From NCBI GenBank assembly GCA_016928955.1, contig JAFGJV010000058.1:1-63489 (forward strand): a stretch of DNA of 63,489 nt. Direction: 5' to 3'. The position numbers were made by a program, and so were the translations under genes. Shown here piece after piece: positions 1-63,489 of this stretch. Within the stretch, counting starts at the first letter, position 1. Each line of letters starts with the position of its first letter. The notes beneath the pieces are model-generated. The model saw nothing but the letters and a program-made list of their open reading frames with translations. It was not told the DNA's origin and made no database searches. This DNA comes from Spirochaetales bacterium. GTDB lineage: Bacteria; Spirochaetota; Spirochaetia; Treponematales; UBA12059.

Positions 1-183
1 GTAGCGGAGATGCCCCTGCTACGCCAAGCGGACGCGCCGCGCTTGCTTCTGCGCGATTTTCAACAAGGTTCGCGGCACTATGGAAGCTTTGTGGTGGCTG
101 GAGCCCCTGATGTACGGCCCCAATCGCGGCACAGCGCGATTTTGAGTGGTCAAAGACAAGCGCCGGGCGTCCATCGCGCGTAG
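1..183 (+). CDS. Possible C-terminal tail of an unknown gene (5' end outside window)
   Basis: Frame 1 is open from the first base to a TAG at 181-183, giving 60 codons. The translation does not resemble a family I recognise. Long open frames arise easily in GC-rich DNA, so this may be noise. If real, the gene ends eight bases before the preferred recQ start and overlaps the alternative GTG start. Confidence 0.3.
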   Translation, partial: VAEMPLLRQADAPRLLLRDFQQGSRHYGSFVVAGAPDVRPQSRHSAILSGQRQAPGVHRA

Positions 184-190
184 TAGTCAT

Positions 191-1684
191 ATGGATACAA
201 ACGATCCCCTGTCCAAACTCGCCGCGGACGTCTTTAGCGTGTCGTATCTCTTTCCCTACCAGAGGCTGGCCATGGAACATGTGCTTGACGCCTGTTCCGA
301 AAGCCACGATCAAGAACGGGAGCTCCTCGCGGGACAGATTGTCATCCTGCCTACCGGTTACGGGAAAAGCCTCTGCTTCCAGCTGCCCGCCCTGCTTCTG
401 GACGGCATAACGGTGGTCGTGTATCCGTTGGTCGGCCTCATGCAGGACCAAAAGCGCGGCCTTCAGGCCAGGGGCATAGCATCTGCACTCATCCAGGGCG
501 GGCAGGACGCAGCCGAGCGGGCCGATCAATTCAGGCTCCTGGAAAGCGGCGGTGCCAAAATAGCCATAACCAATCCGGAGGCTTTGTCCCTGGCCGGCGT
601 GCTGTCCAGGTTCAGGCGCTTAGGCGTTGCCCATCTGGTGGTGGACGAGGCCCACTGCGTGGCCGAATGGGGCGACACCTTCCGGCCGGCGTACCTTGGG
701 CTCGGAGCCAGCGCCGCCGCGCTGAATCCGGCCTACCTGAGCGCGTTCACGGCCACCGCCTCGCCCGCTATACTCGGCCGCGTGGCCGACGTCCTGTTCG
801 GAGAAAAGGCATACACGGTGGCCATGGGCCTGCCCGACCGCCCAAATATCAGGTACGCCGTCAGGCTGACCCTGTCGCCCCTGCATGAGATCAGGGCGGC
901 CGTGCAGACCCTGCCTCGGCCGTTGATCGTGTTCTCCGCCTCTAGGCCGGGCGTGGAGACCCTGGCCGAGGACCTGTCCATGTCCGAAGCCCCGGGCACG
1001 GTGCGCTTCTACCACGCCGGCCTGTCCAAACCCGAGCGACTGTCCGTGGAAGCATGGTTTTACTCGGCCAGGAACGCCGTGATGTGCGCGACCTGCGCAT
1101 ACGGGCTTGGCATGGATAAGCCGGACATACGAAGCGTGGTACACGCGGGGACCCCGGCGTCGGTTGAAGCATACCTGCAGGAATCAGGGCGGGCGGGACG
1201 GGACGGGCTGCCAGCATGGGCCCTTCTTGTCGACACGCCCATAAAAACGAGCCGCGCAACGGCCCCGCCCGGCTCAAGCTCACACGCCGAGGCCAGGAGC
1301 CTGGCCATGCGCCGTTACGCCCTGGCGCCCGGCTGCAGGCGCCGCTACCTCCTGTCCGCCCTGGACTCCCCCGGCGCGGCCGACTGCGCTTGTTCCGGTT
1401 GCGATCGCTGTGACCGCCTGGATTCGGATACGCCTTCGGGCTGGCCGGAACTGAACGGGGCCATTGCTCGGCATCCGCGCCGCCTGGACAAGGCTGCTGC
1501 GGTCGCCTTCCTTAAAGATACCGGCCAGCGCTCAGCCGGCGCCGGCACCCTGGCTGCTTGGGCTGACGACGAGGTCACCGAGGCACTGAGCGTCGCCTGT
1601 TCATGCGGCTGGATACGGGAACGGGTTGCCGGCCCCTGGAAGGGGCGGCTGTCGGCTGGCCGGGGGGTGCATGCACTGGCCTGA
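191..1684 (+). CDS. recQ: RecQ-family ATP-dependent DNA helicase, short form
   Basis: A superfamily 2 3'-5' DNA helicase of the RecQ family, expected to act in recombination and fork repair. Numbering from the ATG at 191: Walker A PTGYGKS at about 54-60, DEAHC at about 152-156, FTATAS motif III, and the motif VI QESGRAGRDG in the second RecA lobe. A zinc-binding cysteine cluster (GCRRRY...CACSGCDRC) follows. At about 497 residues it is shorter than the roughly 600-residue E. coli enzyme: the RQC winged helix looks reduced and no HRDC domain is visible. A GTG at 146 would add 15 residues, but these overlap the upstream open frame, so 191 is preferred. Neither start has a strong ribosome site. 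Confidence 0.85.
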   Translation: MDTNDPLSKLAADVFSVSYLFPYQRLAMEHVLDACSESHDQERELLAGQIVILPTGYGKSLCFQLPALLLDGITVVVYPLVGLMQDQKRGLQARGIASALIQGGQDAAERADQFRLLESGGAKIAITNPEALSLAGVLSRFRRLGVAHLVVDEAHCVAEWGDTFRPAYLGLGASAAALNPAYLSAFTATASPAILGRVADVLFGEKAYTVAMGLPDRPNIRYAVRLTLSPLHEIRAAVQTLPRPLIVFSASRPGVETLAEDLSMSEAPGTVRFYHAGLSKPERLSVEAWFYSARNAVMCATCAYGLGMDKPDIRSVVHAGTPASVEAYLQESGRAGRDGLPAWALLVDTPIKTSRATAPPGSSSHAEARSLAMRRYALAPGCRRRYLLSALDSPGAADCACSGCDRCDRLDSDTPSGWPELNGAIARHPRRLDKAAAVAFLKDTGQRSAGAGTLAAWADDEVTEALSVACSCGWIRERVAGPWKGRLSAGRGVHALA

Positions 1685-1724: not shown

Positions 1725-1982
1725 TTACAGCGGGAAGTTGTCCTCTTCGTCGTCGGCTTCGTCCTGGTCGGCAGGAGCCTGCTCGGGCGGCGCGTGGGCG
1801 ACTCTCTTGCTCCGGAAAGACAGCGACCGGCGCTTCCTACCTTCCCTGGCCCAGGGATCGGCCAGGTTCCGGAACAGTATCCAAACGGCCACGAATATGG
1901 CCAGGGTAAGCAGTACTTCCCAGCGGCCCATGACCTCCCAGGCCAGACGCAACCTGTCCGCTATTCCCGATTCAGCCTGCAT
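1725..1982 (-). CDS. Small single-span membrane protein next to the PilZ gene
   Basis: An 85-residue protein I do not recognise. One hydrophobic segment (about residues 20-38) is followed by a basic stretch (REGRKRRS) and a very acidic tail ending DEEDNFPL, so an inner-membrane anchor with a cytoplasmic charged tail is likely. It starts 29 bases after the stop of the PilZ gene on the same strand and probably shares its transcript. Pairing of a PilZ receptor with a small membrane partner is plausible but is inference only. Confidence 0.6.
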   Translation of the reverse strand: MQAESGIADRLRLAWEVMGRWEVLLTLAIFVAVWILFRNLADPWAREGRKRRSLSFRSKRVAHAPPEQAPADQDEADDEEDNFPL

Positions 1983-2011: not shown

Positions 2012-3244
2012 TTAACCCGAGTAGACGGTCTCGTCGCTTGGCATGCTCGACGAGCGGTCCGCGTACAGAAGCTCCCTGAGCGCGGCCATGCCGCCCTCAT
2101 CCAGGCCGAGGAAGGAAACGCCGTAGTACTCGTTTTCCCTGTCCTCAAAACGCCGCACCACCCTGCCCTTGCACAGCAAATCCAGGCTCGGCGCCCGTAT
2201 GCCAAGGTCAAGCACGGCAGCCTGTTTGAGCTTGACCGGATAGCTGGACTTGGGCAGGACGAACAGGCAGCCAGACGCCGAGAAGTCCAGCACGTGGGGG
2301 CGGTGCGGCTCGGGTTTCCCCTTGCCGTCGCCCTTGAAGTATCCTTGTTCCTTGAGCTTCCAGGCCAGGGCCCTGGCGAATTCCCAGGCAAAATCAACGG
2401 CCCGGAAATCCAGGCACACTTTCTTGCTCTCGTCGTTCATGATGTACACATACCCTATGACGTACTGGTAATAGAGCATGGGACAATACACTTCCGACAC
2501 CACGCCGGCCTGGGCCTTCTCAGCCCGGTTCTTCTCCAGGGTTGACCCTTCCAGGAAGATGGACGGGCCTTCGTACGCGTCGGCCATGGCCTGGGTGACG
2601 ATCCTGCCCTCCGGGTAGGGATCGGTGGGCGGCAGGTTGCTTTTGGTGCTGGCCACCAGGAGGACTCTCCCGAGCCGCGTGATGATTTTCTCCTCCAGCG
2701 TCGAGGGCGCTCGTTTGGGCCCGAACATGATGACGCCCGCCTGGCTGTATTTTGCCGTGGCCTTGGCCTGGAAGCTGGCCAGGAGACCGTTCAGGCTGGA
2801 CAGGTCAAAGCCTTCCTTGGGTTCGGGCAGCTCGAGCTCGAGGTACTCGGTCGACTCGGGCACGGTCATGTGGACATGGTCGTTCTGCAGGTAAAATTCC
2901 AGGGCAAGACCCTTGGGCGGGGCGACCCTAACGGCCTTGCGCTGGGGCGCTTTCAGCAGGCGCTCGGGCAGGGCAAGGTGCAGACGGCGGCCGTCCACCC
3001 GGATCACCTTGGACGAAAAGGCCAGGCGCTGCCCCTGGTAGCCAAGCGATGCCGTGACCTCCTCCCAGGAGGCAAAAGGGTTTGGGCCTACGTCGGTCGT
3101 TTCCAGGACCACCACATCCTTGTCAAAGGACGTGATGACGCACCTGGCTGACTTGCCGGGCCCGAAAAGCGACACCGCTCCCTTGGACCTCATCAGCTGG
3201 TTCAGGAGGAATTCTTTCTCTATGAACGTTATGGAATTGGTCAT
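2012..3244 (-). CDS. PilZ protein with a GAF-like insertion (paralogue A)
   Basis: A 410-residue predicted cyclic-di-GMP receptor. The N-terminal 95 or so residues look like the beta-barrel that precedes PilZ in YcgR-type proteins. The PilZ signature is present but split: R102-x3-R106 (in QRKAVR) and D320-x-S322-x2-G325 (in LDFSASG) are about 218 residues apart instead of the usual few tens. Between them, about residues 165-300 read like a GAF domain (EVYCPMLYYQYVIGYVYIMN, then a helix with FARALAWKL). The family may correspond to the spirochaetal DUF1577 group, from memory. The ATG at 3244 is chosen because an extended -10 promoter lies just upstream and paralogue B starts at the equivalent residue. 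Upstream in-frame codons overlap the promoter. Confidence 0.8.
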   Translation of the reverse strand: MTNSITFIEKEFLLNQLMRSKGAVSLFGPGKSARCVITSFDKDVVVLETTDVGPNPFASWEEVTASLGYQGQRLAFSSKVIRVDGRRLHLALPERLLKAPQRKAVRVAPPKGLALEFYLQNDHVHMTVPESTEYLELELPEPKEGFDLSSLNGLLASFQAKATAKYSQAGVIMFGPKRAPSTLEEKIITRLGRVLLVASTKSNLPPTDPYPEGRIVTQAMADAYEGPSIFLEGSTLEKNRAEKAQAGVVSEVYCPMLYYQYVIGYVYIMNDESKKVCLDFRAVDFAWEFARALAWKLKEQGYFKGDGKGKPEPHRPHVLDFSASGCLFVLPKSSYPVKLKQAAVLDLGIRAPSLDLLCKGRVVRRFEDRENEYYGVSFLGLDEGGMAALRELLYADRSSSMPSDETVYSG

Positions 3245-3450: not shown

Positions 3451-3515
3451 TCCCGTATCGAAACGACACAGTATGGGCGCTGGCTGACGAGCGGAGCCCT
3501 CAAGGCAGGTACGCT

Positions 3516-36624: not shown

Positions 36625-37704
36625 TTACTGGATGAGCTGGTCGTCCTCGCCACGGGCGATGATGATCTCTCCCGTGTCCTCGAGGTGGCGGATGACCGCG
36701 ACGATTTTCTGCTGGGCTTCCTCCACATCCTTGATGCGGACGGGACCCATGTACTCCATGTCCTCCTTGAGCGCCTGGGCGGCGCGCTTGGACACGTTCT
36801 GGAATATCTTTTCCTGCACTTCCTGGTCCACGCCCTTGAGGGCCCGCGTGAGGTCCTGGGTGTCCACCTCGCGGATGACCTTCTGGATGGAGCGGTTGTC
36901 CAGCATGACGATGTCCTCGAAGACGAACATCTTTTTCTTGATTTCCTCGGCCAGCTCCGGGTTTTCCTCTTCCAGGGCCTCAAGGATGCCTTTTTCCGTG
37001 GTACGGTCCGCAAGGTTGAGGATCTCGACGATGGCGTCCACGCCGCCCGCCGCCGTGTAGTCCTCGCTGGACAGGGTGGACAGCTTCTTCTCCAGTACCC
37101 GTTCCACCTCGCGGAGCACTTCCGGCGACGTGCGGTCCATGGTCGCTATGCGTTTGGCCACGTCCGACTGGCTTTCCTTGGGCAGCTTGGTCAGGATGTA
37201 GCTTGCCTTGTTCGGCTCCAGGTAGGCCAGGATCAGGGCTATGGTCTGCGGGTGCTCGGTCTGTATGAAGTTGAGGAGGTTGGCCGGGTCGGTGCGCCGT
37301 ATGAAGTCGAAGGGCCGGACCTGCAGGCTGGACGTCAGCCTGTTGATGATGTCTATGGCCTTCTGCGAGCCAAGGGCCTTTTCCAGAAGCTCGCGGGCAT
37401 AGTCGATGCCGCCAGAGCTGATGAACTCGCTGGCCATCATCAGCTCCTGGAATTCCATGAGCACGGCGTCTTTGAGCTCCGGCTCCACGTTCTCCAGACG
37501 GGCTATCTCGAAGGTCAGGGTCTCTATCTCGTCCTCGCGCAGGTGCTTGAATATCTCCGCCGATATCTCCGAGCCCAGGGTGATGAGGAAGATGGCGGCT
37601 TTCTGCCTTCCGTTGAGGTCTTTGGCGTTTTTAGCCTTCTTGCCCGTTGCGGCCGGCGACGCGGCCGCGGCGGGCTTCCCTTTGGCGGGCGCGGCTTGGG
37701 GCAT
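36625..37704 (-). CDS. fliG: Flagellar switch/torque protein FliG
   Basis: 359 residues. An Ala/Lys/Pro-rich N-terminal extension (about 1-30) precedes the N domain (NGRQKAAIFLITLG) that binds FliF. The middle domain has the EHPQTIALILAYL motif and the C-terminal domain carries the charged torque helix region (MFVFEDIVMLDNRSIQKVIREVD). Spirochaetes often have two fliG genes; this operon-encoded copy is the one between fliF and fliH. Confidence 0.95.
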   Translation of the reverse strand: MPQAAPAKGKPAAAASPAATGKKAKNAKDLNGRQKAAIFLITLGSEISAEIFKHLREDEIETLTFEIARLENVEPELKDAVLMEFQELMMASEFISSGGIDYARELLEKALGSQKAIDIINRLTSSLQVRPFDFIRRTDPANLLNFIQTEHPQTIALILAYLEPNKASYILTKLPKESQSDVAKRIATMDRTSPEVLREVERVLEKKLSTLSSEDYTAAGGVDAIVEILNLADRTTEKGILEALEEENPELAEEIKKKMFVFEDIVMLDNRSIQKVIREVDTQDLTRALKGVDQEVQEKIFQNVSKRAAQALKEDMEYMGPVRIKDVEEAQQKIVAVIRHLEDTGEIIIARGEDDQLIQ

Positions 37705-58485: not shown

Positions 58486-59243
58486 GCGTCCTCCGGATGT
58501 CCGCCCCGCCCCGTCGGCGCCAGGGCTCGGAACAGGTTCTCCCGTACCAGTGTATCGATTTTAGCCAATTCCGCAAGCACGGGCTTGTACGCCTGCCTTC
58601 TGGACAGGCTGGATCGTGGGCAGGAGTCGGCCAGCACGGGCAGGCCAAGGCGCGACACGAGCGTGCGTATGCTGGACTCCCGCACCATGATCAGGGGACG
58701 CACCAGCGTGTACTGCCCAAAGAAGCCGGCCACCGGCCGCAGGGGCTCCGCCCTGCCCGCCCGCGCCAGGTTCATGATGGCCGTCAGGGCAAAGTCGTCC
58801 AGGTGGTGGCCAAGGGCAACAACGCCGCAGCCCAGGTCCCGCGCCGCCTCGAACAGCACGCGCCTTCTTTCGCGCGAGCACACATAGCAATCCAGGCCGC
58901 CGTCTTTCATGGCGCGAGGCAGGGGCCTCCGCTCCAGGCTGAAAGTCGCGCCCAGGGCCGCGGCCAGGTCATTCAGGGCATTGAGGTCGTCGGGACGGGC
59001 ATCCATGCCTTCCCACTCGACGCGTACCGCGTGTATTCCGTAGTCGTCCTTGACCCTGCGACGCCTGAGGGCCAGGGCCACGAGCAGGGCCAGGGAGTCC
59101 TTGCCGCCAGACAGTCCGACCAGGACCCTGTCGCCGTTGGCCACCATGCCGTAGCGGTGCACCGCCTTGCCCGCGAGCGACAGAAAACGCTGGACATAGC
59201 CCGGGTAGCGGCCGTCCAGGACGGCCCTCAGCTGGTCGTTCAC
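58467..59243 (-). CDS. ttcA: TtcA-like PP-loop tRNA thiolation enzyme
   Basis: 258 residues. The ATP-pyrophosphatase loop is LVGLSGGKDSLALL. A CxxC pair (DCYVCSRERRR) and a later Cys (ADSCPRSSLSRR) match the three iron-sulphur ligands of TtcA, which makes 2-thiocytidine at tRNA position 32. GHHLDDFALTAIMNLARAG is the second conserved block. A related PP-loop enzyme of another specificity cannot be excluded. Its start overlaps the HD gene stop by ATGA. Confidence 0.75.
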   Translation of the reverse strand: MNDQLRAVLDGRYPGYVQRFLSLAGKAVHRYGMVANGDRVLVGLSGGKDSLALLVALALRRRRVKDDYGIHAVRVEWEGMDARPDDLNALNDLAAALGATFSLERRPLPRAMKDGGLDCYVCSRERRRVLFEAARDLGCGVVALGHHLDDFALTAIMNLARAGRAEPLRPVAGFFGQYTLVRPLIMVRESSIRTLVSRLGLPVLADSCPRSSLSRRQAYKPVLAELAKIDTLVRENLFRALAPTGRGGHPEDAWTSTT

Positions 59244-60484
59244 GCCTCCGGGCCCAGGATACTGCGGGCAGCCAGGGCCACGCGGTCCGGCTGCCCGTCG
59301 GTGTACACCCTGAGCACGCGCAGGGATCTGGTGAAGGACGACACCACCTCGGGGCGGAACACGGTGGCGGACTCGGAGAACGAGCCGCCCGATCCGAGCA
59401 CGGGCAGGTCTGACTCAAAGGATATGGGCTCAGGCAGGTCGACGATGACCGAGCGCCCTCGTTCGTCCGCCGGGAGGGCGTCCGTTATGGCCGTTTCCAC
59501 ATCCGCGCGGCTGTCCAGGCTTGCCGCGGCCGCGTGGGCGGGCAAGGCCTCCTCGTAGGGCAGTTCCAGGCAACAGCGCATGAGGGCACCAGACTTGACG
59601 GCGGCTATCATGCCCAGCCTATCGCGGCCTTCCATGAGGGCGTAAAAACCTGCGTCGTCCAGCCCGTACAGGGCATCTGGCTCGAGGGTGCCGGAGGCCA
59701 GGGCGCTTACCACGGCCTTCTTGATCATGGCCGTGGCTGCGCGGACGCCCCGGTGCCAGTACACGGCCTTGTACATCTGGTATTTGCTGAACAGCACGGC
59801 CTCGACCGCCATGACGCCGCGCCCGTCCACGCCGGGCCGTCCGTCGTCGCCCATCCCGATATGCTGCAGCACAAAATCAACGTCCTGCAGGCCGTAGGGC
59901 ACGCCGCAAGCCCAGGCGTCGCGGTTGAGGTAATCCAGCTTGTCCGGGTCCAGGACACCGGACAACAGGCGCCTAAAGAGGCCGAGCCAGGGCGCGTCCG
60001 CGCTGGGAGCGGGCAGGTCCTGGTCGACGATAGCCGCCACCAGCTCCGGATCGGCACCGGCCCCGCGGATGAACGGCGACAGGGAGCCTGTCACGATCCT
60101 GGCGGTCAGCGCCTCGTGCTCGGCCAGGGGCAGTTCCTTAAGGGAATGGGCGTAGGGGAAATGCCCAAGGTCGTGGCAGAGCGCGGCCAGCAGGAAAGCC
60201 CGTGCAGATGCCTGATCCATGCCGTCCAGGCAGCCTGTCGAGGCCAGGGCAGACAGCTGGCGCCTGGCCATCTCGTACACGCCTATGGAGTGGGCGCGGC
60301 GCGTGTGGGTGGCGCCGGGATACACCAGATGGGCCGGCCCGAGCTGGAGTATGCGCGACAACTGCACGAATTCGGGCGCTTCTATGACCGGCAGGAAGGA
60401 CGGCGGTAGCAGTATGTTGCGCCAGATGGGATCGCGCACGGGCTCCGTAAAAGCGGTGCCAAACAGCCTGGAATCGTCGAACAT
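59240..60484 (-). CDS. HD-superfamily phosphohydrolase (dNTPase-like, COG1078 type)
   Basis: 414 residues. The metal-binding HD set is visible: His in YPGATHTRRAHSIGVYEMA, the HD pair in CHDLGHFPYAHSL and the Asp in DPDKLDYLNRDAW. This pattern is that of SAMHD1-like and YwfO-type hydrolases, which cleave dNTPs or related nucleotides; the substrate here is unknown. ATG 60484 has AGGGGG upstream and is preferred to the start 33 bases earlier, which would overlap the promoter. Confidence 0.82.
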   Translation of the reverse strand: MFDDSRLFGTAFTEPVRDPIWRNILLPPSFLPVIEAPEFVQLSRILQLGPAHLVYPGATHTRRAHSIGVYEMARRQLSALASTGCLDGMDQASARAFLLAALCHDLGHFPYAHSLKELPLAEHEALTARIVTGSLSPFIRGAGADPELVAAIVDQDLPAPSADAPWLGLFRRLLSGVLDPDKLDYLNRDAWACGVPYGLQDVDFVLQHIGMGDDGRPGVDGRGVMAVEAVLFSKYQMYKAVYWHRGVRAATAMIKKAVVSALASGTLEPDALYGLDDAGFYALMEGRDRLGMIAAVKSGALMRCCLELPYEEALPAHAAAASLDSRADVETAITDALPADERGRSVIVDLPEPISFESDLPVLGSGGSFSESATVFRPEVVSSFTRSLRVLRVYTDGQPDRVALAARSILGPEA

Positions 60485-60500
60485 GAGTCCCCCTTCCGCC

Positions 60501-60529
60501 TTGCCTGACCGTACCAAGCACGATACTAT
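60501..60529 (+). promoter_or_regulatory. Promoter of the lipoprotein gene, with almost no leader
   Basis: TTGCCT (60501-60506), 17-base spacer, TACTAT (60524-60529). The ATG follows nine bases later at 60539, so transcription would start at or very near the start codon. The -10 overlaps that of the divergent HD gene. Confidence 0.5.
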
Positions 60530-61366: not shown

Positions 61367-62614
61367 ATGGCAACCCTGGTCAAGAACATAGAACGCGAAT
61401 TCCTCCTCCAGGCGGCCAAGCGCGAGCGCGCCGTCCTGTCCATGTCGGCTGGCGGGGGAGAGTGGAATACCCATATCATGGATGTGGGACCGGGCTCGAT
61501 AACGCTCGAGCATGGCGCCCCCCTGTCGGCGCTCCGCAAGGGCGCCATCCTGGAGTTCCGCTGCGCCCTGCGTGGCCAGACCCTTGCCTTCAAGACCACG
61601 GTCCTGGAGCCAGGGGCGCGCACGCTCAAAGTCGCCCTGCCGGACAAGCTGTACAAAAACCTCCTCAGGCGCTTTGCCCGGATGGCGCCTCCGGGTGACC
61701 TCTCCGCGTCGTTCTCGTTTCTGGGCGAGCGTTATGACCTGGATTTCCCCTCGGGCGGGGCGTACGGCCCCAGCGACAGCTTCCAGCCATCCGAGGATTT
61801 CAATCCCGCCGACATCAGGGAACTGGTGGCAGAGTTCGACCGCAAGGCAGGAGGGGCCGCGTCCGAACACGGCATCGTCATGTACAAAAACCGCATTCCC
61901 CAGGGGCCCGTGGAACGCCTGGCCGCGGATACCGGCCGCGCTTTTTACCTGCCGTCCATACTGTCCGGCCTGCCCCTGAGCGATCCCTTTGCAGAGCGCA
62001 CCATACTCACGCGGGACGACTTTCTGTCCTGGTTCATGGACGAAGAGGGCCTGGACCGCGAATTCGCCGAGGACGAGGTGGTACGGCTCGAGAGGGCCAA
62101 GCGCAACGACGGGGTGCTGTCCGAGCTGCTGGTGCCCGTGCTCTTCCAGGAATACGTGCTCGGACACGTGTCGGTTACCAACAAGCGCCAGGGCCATCCG
62201 CCCCTGGACCTCAAGGCCGTGGAAACCTTCGGCGCCTTCGCGCGGGCCCTGGCCTGGTCGCTCAAGCTCCATGGCTACTTCAAGGGCTCTCCCCGCCTGG
62301 ACGACAGCTACGCCACGGAGGTGCTGGACGTGTCAGCCGGGGGGCTGTTGTTCGCGTGCCGCGACGCGCGGCTCATACAGGCCCTGAAAGACGGCTCCGA
62401 GGTCAATGTGCGCGTCAGCGCCAAGCGCCGGAACGTGGACGCGGTCGGCGTCATCCGCAGGCATTACGCCGCCACCAGGGAAGGCCTCTTTGGCATCGAG
62501 TTCACCGGAATGGCGCCTGAGGACTTCCGATTCCTCTTCGAGTACCTGTACGGCCGGGCCTTCACGGACGGCGACGCCGATTCTGTGGAAGGCGTCCGGG
62601 TGCTCAGGCCCTGA
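61367..62614 (+). CDS. PilZ protein with a GAF-like insertion (paralogue B)
   Basis: 415 residues, paralogue of the protein at 2012-3244. Same architecture: N-terminal barrel (about 1-95), R101-x3-R105 (LRRFAR), a GAF-like segment (about 165-300; SELLVPVLFQEYVLGHVSVTN, then FARALAWSL), D321-x-S323-x2-G326 (LDVSAGG), and the rest of the PilZ barrel (RRHYAATREGLFGIEFTG). Similarity between the paralogues is strongest at the ends of the insertion and in the second PilZ half. Followed directly by a strong terminator. Confidence 0.8.
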   Translation: MATLVKNIEREFLLQAAKRERAVLSMSAGGGEWNTHIMDVGPGSITLEHGAPLSALRKGAILEFRCALRGQTLAFKTTVLEPGARTLKVALPDKLYKNLLRRFARMAPPGDLSASFSFLGERYDLDFPSGGAYGPSDSFQPSEDFNPADIRELVAEFDRKAGGAASEHGIVMYKNRIPQGPVERLAADTGRAFYLPSILSGLPLSDPFAERTILTRDDFLSWFMDEEGLDREFAEDEVVRLERAKRNDGVLSELLVPVLFQEYVLGHVSVTNKRQGHPPLDLKAVETFGAFARALAWSLKLHGYFKGSPRLDDSYATEVLDVSAGGLLFACRDARLIQALKDGSEVNVRVSAKRRNVDAVGVIRRHYAATREGLFGIEFTGMAPEDFRFLFEYLYGRAFTDGDADSVEGVRVLRP

Positions 62615-62677: not shown

Positions 62678-63235
62678 TCAGCCTATGGCGTGCTTCTTCT
62701 GCGGGAATTTCTTCAGCATGGCCACGGCGTTGCGCTTGTTGTTGAACACAAAGCCGCCGTTCCAGTATTCCAGCGCGGCGAACAGGGCGTTGCCGCCGTC
62801 GTTGTCGTCGCTCTTTTGCGTGCGGAAGGACACAAAGTCTGACAGCTTCTCAAAATCCTGCTCGGACAGGATTTCCAGGCGCTTGCGGTTGAACGCGTTC
62901 CATTTCTCCAGGTCCTTGAAACCGTCGCCCTCGTCCTGGACGATCAGGTGGGCGTGGGTGGAGTCGAATGAGTACCACACGCGCACCTTCTTGGCCGTGT
63001 CGCTGTGGTTGCCGTGCTTGACGGCGTTCTTGATCACCTCGGATATCTGCTGCTCCAGGAGGTTGATCTCCTTGATTTCCAGCGGGGCCGACTGGACGAT
63101 CAGCAGGGTGAAATAGCGTATCTGCCGGTAGTCCGACGGGAACTCCTTGAACAGCATGCCGGTCTTGTCGAACAGGGGGCTGTTCTCGTCAACGCGGATT
63201 TCGTGGATCTCGCTCAGATAGGTTTTGTCTGACAT
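62678..63235 (-). CDS. RsbW-like anti-sigma/ATP-binding regulatory protein
   Basis: 185 residues with an HATPase_c_2 domain: N box LLEQQISEVIKNAVKHGN and G1 IVQDEGDGFKD. It resembles RsbW/SpoIIAB anti-sigma factor kinases, but has a longer C-terminal part (about 125-185) with a further glycine loop (DDNDGGNALFAALEYW). Its target may be the STAS protein encoded eight bases upstream. The ATG at 63235 is used; the longer frame runs into the STAS gene. Confidence 0.85.
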   Translation of the reverse strand: MSDKTYLSEIHEIRVDENSPLFDKTGMLFKEFPSDYRQIRYFTLLIVQSAPLEIKEINLLEQQISEVIKNAVKHGNHSDTAKKVRVWYSFDSTHAHLIVQDEGDGFKDLEKWNAFNRKRLEILSEQDFEKLSDFVSFRTQKSDDNDGGNALFAALEYWNGGFVFNNKRNAVAMLKKFPQKKHAIG

Positions 63236-63243
63236 AGGTTCTC

Positions 63244-63489
63244 CTAGTCTTCCATCTGCTGGATGGCTTCCTCGATGCTGTTGGTGATCGGGAAGTAGCC
63301 CATGAGCTTGGTCAGCTCGATGACCTTTTTGACCGAACCGTGGATGTTCGTGATGATGAGCTTGAGGTTCATCTTCTTGATGGTCGAGCAAATGTAGATG
63401 AGGGCGCCTATTCCGCTCGAGTCGATATAGTCGACGTTTTCCAGGTTGATGATGAAGCGCTCGACCTTCTTCTCGAGCATCTTCATGAC
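63244..63489 (-). CDS. STAS-domain anti-sigma factor antagonist (5' end outside window)
   Basis: At least 80 residues. The phosphorylation motif is NVDYIDSSGIGALIYI, with the Ser of DSSG as acceptor. A complete STAS protein is about 105-115 residues and the first strands (before VERFIINLENV) are missing, so the gene continues past the window edge; the ATG at 63486 is probably internal. Paired with the RsbW-like kinase downstream. Confidence 0.85.
   Translation of the reverse strand, partial: VMKMLEKKVERFIINLENVDYIDSSGIGALIYICSTIKKMNLKLIITNIHGSVKKVIELTKLMGYFPITNSIEEAIQQMED

What the first reader, a model, noticed from the sequence alone, without database searches (positions are those of the whole stretch)
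2012..3244. PilZ domain apparently split by a GAF-like domain
In this protein RxxxR (R102, R106) and DxSxxG (D320, S322, G325) are about 218 residues apart. In ordinary PilZ domains the two half-motifs are separated by roughly 20-35 residues. The stretch between has GAF-like features (a strand-rich segment with a VIGYVYIMN-type strand and a final FARALAWKL helix). A sensor domain inserted inside a cyclic-di-GMP receptor would couple two inputs in one fold. The motif spacing is seen; the domain-in-domain model is inference.
Basis: partly seen in the sequence, partly recalled or inferred. Interest (0 to 1): 0.82.

Follow-up and report, generated by a model that had tools for sequence, protein, structure and literature searches.

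The report
Spirochete YcgR-GAZ c-di-GMP receptor
This is a bacterial receptor for the signal molecule cyclic-di-GMP whose binding domain is interrupted by a second sensor-like domain, a real and unusual design that was published for spirochetes in 2025, so here it is a further example and not a discovery.

Summary
RxxxR (R102/R106) and DxSxxG (D320/S322/G325) are 218 residues apart. Removing the stretch between them turns a truncated Pfam PilZ match (profile 22-101) into a full-length one (2-101) with a higher score. AlphaFold2 gives a confident three-part model. Foldseek matches it to MrkH, YcgR and MotI through alignments that must span the insert, and matches the insert alone to GAF domains, including Leptospira Lcd1. 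The architecture is already published: YcgR^GAZ (Visnardi et al. 2025, PMC11800159; Pfam DUF1577), reported across Spirochaetota, with c-di-GMP binding measured for LIC_11920 and lost in the RxxxR mutant. A second copy lies in the same window (61367-62614, +). The two copies fall in two well-supported clades, each with its own conserved gene neighbourhood. Within these clades the GAZ domain carries near-invariant residues (LPxxDPYPxxRIIT region). What GAZ senses or binds, and what the protein controls, is unknown.

The parts
2012..3244 (-). YcgR-GAZ protein, 410 aa (PilZN - PilZ first part - GAZ - PilZ second part)
   Evidence: ORF and translation; homologues colinear over the full length
2960..3244 (-). 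PilZN (YcgR N-terminal type) domain, residues about 1-95
   Evidence: PilZNR Pfam hits in 15 of 56 family members, best 6.8e-8; weak profile hit to E. coli YcgR 5y6f residues 19-122 (E 0.099); strand-rich in the model
2867..2959 (-). First part of the split PilZ domain, residues about 96-126: RxxxR and the first strand
   Evidence: Excision test restores a full PilZ match; strand 114-118 in the model
2927..2941 (-). RxxxR motif (R102-R106)
   Evidence: Invariant in 56 of 56 homologues
2309..2866 (-). GAZ (divergent GAF-like) insert, residues about 127-312
   Evidence: Domain model pLDDT 90.8, pTM 0.87; Foldseek matches to phytochrome GAF modules and Lcd1 GAF 5W10; 29 of 54 homologous inserts match DUF1577
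2594..2635 (-). Conserved LPPTDPYPEGRIVT stretch of the GAZ domain (residues 204-217)
   Evidence: P205, D208, P209, Y210, R214 nearly invariant and T217 invariant in 56 sequences
2057..2308 (-). Second part of the split PilZ domain, residues about 313-396
   Evidence: Pfam PilZ 6.8e-11, profile 22-101; strands 317-321, 325-331, 344-351, 354-367, 371-379 and a final helix
2270..2287 (-). DxSxxG motif (D320-G325)
   Evidence: D 55/56, S 55/56, G 56/56
1725..1982 (-). Small 85-aa protein with one hydrophobic stretch, directly downstream on the same strand; probably the same transcript
   Evidence: Homologues directly downstream of the orthologue in 16 of the 80 fetched loci; no Pfam family
61367..62614 (+). 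Second YcgR-GAZ paralogue, 415 aa (RRFAR and DVSAGG, 220 residues apart)
   Evidence: 28% identity to the first copy; same excision result

Best explanation
[quoted passage not shown] c-di-GMP is bound by R102/R106, just before the first strand, together with D320/S322/G325 beyond the insert, so the two half-motifs form one site (shown for the Leptospira relative, inferred here). Binding most likely changes the relative orientation of PilZN and PilZ, as in YcgR-type proteins, and so switches an interaction with a partner protein. The GAZ domain, joined to both halves of the barrel, most likely adds a second ligand- or partner-binding surface; this last step is inference.
For: Excising the insert gives a full-length PilZ match (profile 2-101, 47.3 bits against 41.0 for the C-terminal part alone); the paralogue behaves the same way (39.7 against 33.0 bits). 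The AlphaFold2 model has mean pLDDT 87.2 and pTM 0.74, with the strand order expected for a split barrel. Foldseek of the whole model: MrkH, YcgR, P4397 and MotI with E 1.8e-7 to 2.5e-6, in alignments of 393-422 columns against targets of 209-235 residues, so the matches bridge a gap of the insert's size. Foldseek of the insert alone: phytochrome GAF modules and Lcd1 GAF 5W10, probability about 1.0. Profile match to distant Spirochaetota proteins, two of which carry DUF1577 at 2.1e-36 and 2.2e-15: probability 99.6%, 369 aligned columns. Motifs conserved in essentially all of 56. Published ITC for LIC_11920: KD 60 nM at 10 C and 300 nM at 20 C, 2:1 stoichiometry, binding lost in R112A/R116A (PMC11800159). 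The genome has 20 GGDEF domains above the cut-off and FliG, so c-di-GMP signalling and a flagellar motor are available.
Against: P0001 itself has no significant Pfam DUF1577 or GAF match; the link runs through relatives and profiles. Foldseek TM-scores are modest (0.19-0.25 by query for the two-domain matches, 0.42-0.54 for the insert), with large rmsd that fits rearranged domains but proves nothing about their arrangement. I could not measure the R102-D320 distance in the model. c-di-GMP binding by this protein has not been tested. Flagellar genes are not among the neighbours identified, so the output is unknown.
Confidence: 0.92

Rival explanations
1. Two separate domains that happen to carry PilZ-like motifs: an N-terminal domain ending in an unrelated RxxxR, and a C-terminal truncated PilZ domain that does not use it.
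For: Pfam by itself sees only the C-terminal 82 residues; RxxxR-like strings are common by chance (one search lists many).
Against: RxxxR is invariant in 56 of 56 at a fixed position; joining the two parts gives a full-length PilZ match in both paralogues; Foldseek aligns two-domain PilZ proteins across the insert; the double Arg mutant of the Leptospira homologue loses binding.
Confidence: 0.03
2. The split PilZ is real, but the insert is not GAF-related; it is an unrelated alpha/beta module that only resembles GAF.
For: No significant sequence match of the insert to GAF models (one member at 0.0046, GAF_2 in three at best 0.063); no solved structure by sequence; Foldseek TM 0.42-0.54 by query.
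Against: The strongest structural matches are GAF modules, and they include Lcd1 GAF 5W10, the structure that the published study used for comparison with GAZ.
Confidence: 0.08
3. The protein is a flagellar brake like E. coli YcgR, and GAZ is only a spacer or docking surface without a ligand.
For: PilZN-PilZ architecture of the YcgR kind; the genome has FliG; LIC_11920 is monomeric and its GAZ pocket is open to solvent (PMC11800159).
Against: No flagellar gene was identified among the neighbours, which are pgi, murG and a RecQ-like helicase gene; the paper also reports flagellar genes as rare near YcgR^GAZ. The 23 near-invariant positions in GAZ against 10 in the second PilZ part suggest more than a spacer.
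Confidence: 0.3

Closest known systems
YcgR^GAZ family (Visnardi et al. 2025, PMC11800159), e.g. Leptospira interrogans LIC_11920; Pfam DUF1577 (PF07614) + PilZ (PF07238)
   Same: Same order PilZN - PilZ first strand with RxxxR - GAZ - rest of PilZ with DxSxxG; full-length profile homology; same phylum. The paper names Spirochaetales members such as Brucepastera, whose homologue falls in the same clade as this protein.
   Different: Sequence too divergent for the DUF1577 model to ring on this protein; its orthologues share a conserved LPxxDPYPxxRIIT region in GAZ that is not conserved in the distant DUF1577 set.
YcgR / MotI (DgrA) / MrkH / VCA0042 two-domain PilZ proteins
   Same: PilZN-like barrel followed by PilZ with RxxxR between them; best Foldseek matches of the whole model
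Lcd1 GAF domain (PDB 5W10, cAMP-bound) and phytochrome GAF modules
   Same: Fold of the insert
   Different: About 8-14% identity; different context; no evidence here of cAMP or bilin binding
Borrelia PlzA (PilZN3-PilZ)
   Same: Spirochete two-domain c-di-GMP receptor (from general knowledge and the literature search)
   Different: No GAF-like insert as far as I know; not compared here by sequence

Membership tests
YcgR^GAZ | C-terminal PilZ domain with RxxxR and [D/N]xSxxG | tested here: met
YcgR^GAZ | GAF-like domain inserted after the first PilZ strand and RxxxR | tested here: met
   Excision test, models, Foldseek
YcgR^GAZ | N-terminal PilZN domain | tested here: met
   PilZNR hits in 15 of 56 family members, Foldseek to YcgR, MrkH and MotI; no PilZN hit on P0001 alone
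YcgR^GAZ | Homology to Pfam DUF1577 | tested here: met
   Not on P0001 itself, but in 20 of 56 full-length homologues, in 29 of 54 inserts at a loose threshold with best 3.7e-11, and by profile-profile match to a set that includes DUF1577 carriers
YcgR^GAZ | Confined to Spirochaetota | tested here: inconclusive
   All 80 kept loci of the genome scan are titled as spirochetes, but only the best 80 of 121 were kept
YcgR^GAZ | Binds c-di-GMP through RxxxR | not testable with these tools
   Shown for LIC_11920 (PMC11800159)
YcgR^GAZ | Monomeric, GAZ lacks the GAF dimerisation helix | not tested
   Oligomeric state not predicted here; the GAZ model does contain a helix at residues 151-165 before its central strands
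Canonical YcgR/MotI | Uninterrupted PilZ domain | tested here: not met
   218-residue spacing against about 29-44 in the genome's four other PilZ proteins
GAF (PF01590 / PF13185) | Significant match to a GAF sequence model | tested here: not met
   No hit on this insert; best among relatives 0.0046. The GAF relation rests on structure only

The most novel reading that the evidence does not exclude
In Spirochaetales the GAZ domain keeps a lineage-specific ligand pocket, marked by the near-invariant LPxxDPYPxxRIIT stretch and neighbouring invariant P, E, G and Y residues, that binds a second small molecule and gates c-di-GMP binding by the surrounding barrel. Phytochrome GAF modules are among the best fold matches, and from memory their PxSDIPxxxR motif has a similar P-x-x-D ... 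R spacing; I could not align the two and treat this as a lead only.
Probability: 0.15. Interest if true: 0.6.

Novelty: new member of a known kind. Interest (0 to 1): 0.25.

Why it matters
A sensor domain placed inside a c-di-GMP receptor is a rare way to combine two signals in one fold. Since the architecture is published, the value here is narrower. The Spirochaetales members form two old, syntenic groups with a conserved GAZ signature, which gives a concrete place to look for the unknown GAZ ligand or partner.

Tried and rejected
A sequence search of solved structures with P0001 gave only katanin hits at E 0.19-0.47 over 169-312, rejected as chance. NCBIfam had no match. Profile searches of solved structures gave only a weak YcgR hit for the whole family (E 0.099) and nothing for the insert. 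The DUF1577 model did not ring in the window's genome, which I take to reflect divergence, because relatives do match it. The viral structure library gave no match at E 0.001. Weak Hfq, SpoVT_C and other Pfam hits in single members were taken as noise.

Full report
What is there. The finding's coordinates contain one convincing gene, on the minus strand: ATG at 3244, stop ending at 2012, 410 residues. The forward frame has internal stops. The homologues align from the same ATG, so 3244 is preferred to the upstream GTG at 3469.

Is it more than chance? In 56 homologues R102, R106 and G325 never vary, D320 and S322 vary once each (to N and T), and the spacing is 215-230 residues in every row. 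The genome has six PilZ proteins. In four of them an RxxxR lies about 29-44 residues before D/NxSxxG. Only this protein and its paralogue at 61367-62614 have it 218 and 220 residues away.

One split domain or two domains? Pfam sees only residues 313-394, matching PilZ from profile position 22 on. When the stretch between about residue 126 and 313 is taken out, the joined sequence matches PilZ over positions 2-101 with 47.3 bits, against 41.0 for the C-terminal part alone; the paralogue gives 39.7 against 33.0. The AlphaFold2 model, made from an alignment of 56 sequences, has mean pLDDT 87.2 and pTM 0.74, with a strand at 114-118 before the insert and five strands plus a helix after it. Foldseek against solved structures gives two-domain PilZ proteins first (MrkH 5EJL 1.8e-7, YcgR 5Y6F 2.3e-7, MotI 5VX6 2.5e-6). 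Their alignments have 393-422 columns although the targets have only 209-235 residues, so they bridge a gap of the insert's size. TM-scores for these are low (0.21-0.25 by query) with large rmsd. I read that as different domain orientation plus the insert, and it limits what the match proves about arrangement.

What is the insert? Folded alone (residues 127-312) it gives pLDDT 90.8 and pTM 0.87. Its best solved matches are GAF modules of bacteriophytochromes and the Leptospira Lcd1 GAF domain 5W10. By sequence it is barely recognisable as GAF (one relative at 0.0046), but 29 of 54 homologous inserts match Pfam DUF1577 at a loose threshold, best 3.7e-11.

Known family. The architecture was described in January 2025 as YcgR^GAZ (Visnardi et al., PMC11800159): DUF1577 is a PilZN domain fused to a GAF-like GAZ domain inserted in PilZ after the first strand and RxxxR. 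The authors report it across Spirochaetota, including Spirochaetales such as Brucepastera and Treponema primitia, with one or two copies per genome. They measured c-di-GMP binding of LIC_11920 (KD 60 nM at 10 C, 300 nM at 20 C, 2:1) and its loss in R112A/R116A. A 2026 paper repeats the classification (PMC12943098). The window protein belongs to this family: full-length profile-profile match at 99.6% over 369 columns to a set of distant Spirochaetota proteins, two of which were scanned and carry DUF1577 at 2.1e-36 and 2.2e-15. The DUF1577 model does not ring on the window protein itself.

Distribution and relatives. All 80 kept genome loci are from spirochetes. In a sample of 296 genomes of the phylum, 82 have a match at E 0.001, though the weakest of these cover only the PilZ part. 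The tree has two groups, 29 and 27 rows, on the two sides of a branch with support 100/98. This protein is in the first; most first-group loci with enough flank have pgi and murG on one side and a RecQ-like helicase gene on the other. The window's second copy is in the second group, whose loci mostly have an HD-domain gene upstream (41 loci); some also have a HATPase_c_2 gene downstream (7 loci). The tree tool flagged the second copy as a long branch, so its exact place within that group is unsure.

How it probably works. Shown for a relative: c-di-GMP binding through RxxxR in a monomer. Inferred here: the same site in this protein, built from both sides of the insert, and a PilZN-PilZ rearrangement on binding. 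Unknown: the role of GAZ and the output. The genome has 20 GGDEF domains above the cut-off and FliG (one copy at 36658-36981 in this window), so a YcgR-like action on the motor is possible. No flagellar gene was identified among the immediate neighbours of this group. The GAZ domain has 23 positions at 90% conservation or more (of 186), against 10 of 84 in the second PilZ part, and a conserved LPxxDPYPxxRIIT region that is not conserved in the distant DUF1577 set. That argues for a specific ligand or partner in this lineage.

Verdict. The small additions are the two syntenic groups, the conserved GAZ signature and the conserved small downstream gene.

Noticed in passing
window 61367-62614 (+): A second YcgR-GAZ paralogue in the same window, 28% identical, belonging to a separate ancient clade with its own conserved neighbourhood.
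   Followed up: yes
window 1725-1982 (-): An 85-aa protein with one hydrophobic stretch, 29 bases downstream of the GAZ gene on the same strand and conserved directly downstream of its orthologues in 16 loci; no Pfam family. A candidate partner.
   Followed up: partly
window 59240-60517 (-) and 62678-63391 (-): An HD-domain protein (HD and HD_assoc_2) and a HATPase_c_2 (anti-sigma-kinase-like) protein flank the second paralogue; the HD gene is upstream of its homologues in 41 fetched loci, the HATPase gene downstream in 7.
   Followed up: partly
window 146-1684 (+): RecQ-like helicase gene converging on the GAZ gene, conserved next to its orthologues in 22 loci.
   Followed up: partly
window 2594-2635 (-), residues 204-217: LPPTDPYPEGRIVT in the GAZ domain, near-invariant in both Spirochaetales groups but not in the distant DUF1577 set; function unknown.
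   Followed up: partly
window 36658-36981 (-): FliG C-terminal domain; the genome has four FliG_C matches in all.
   Followed up: no
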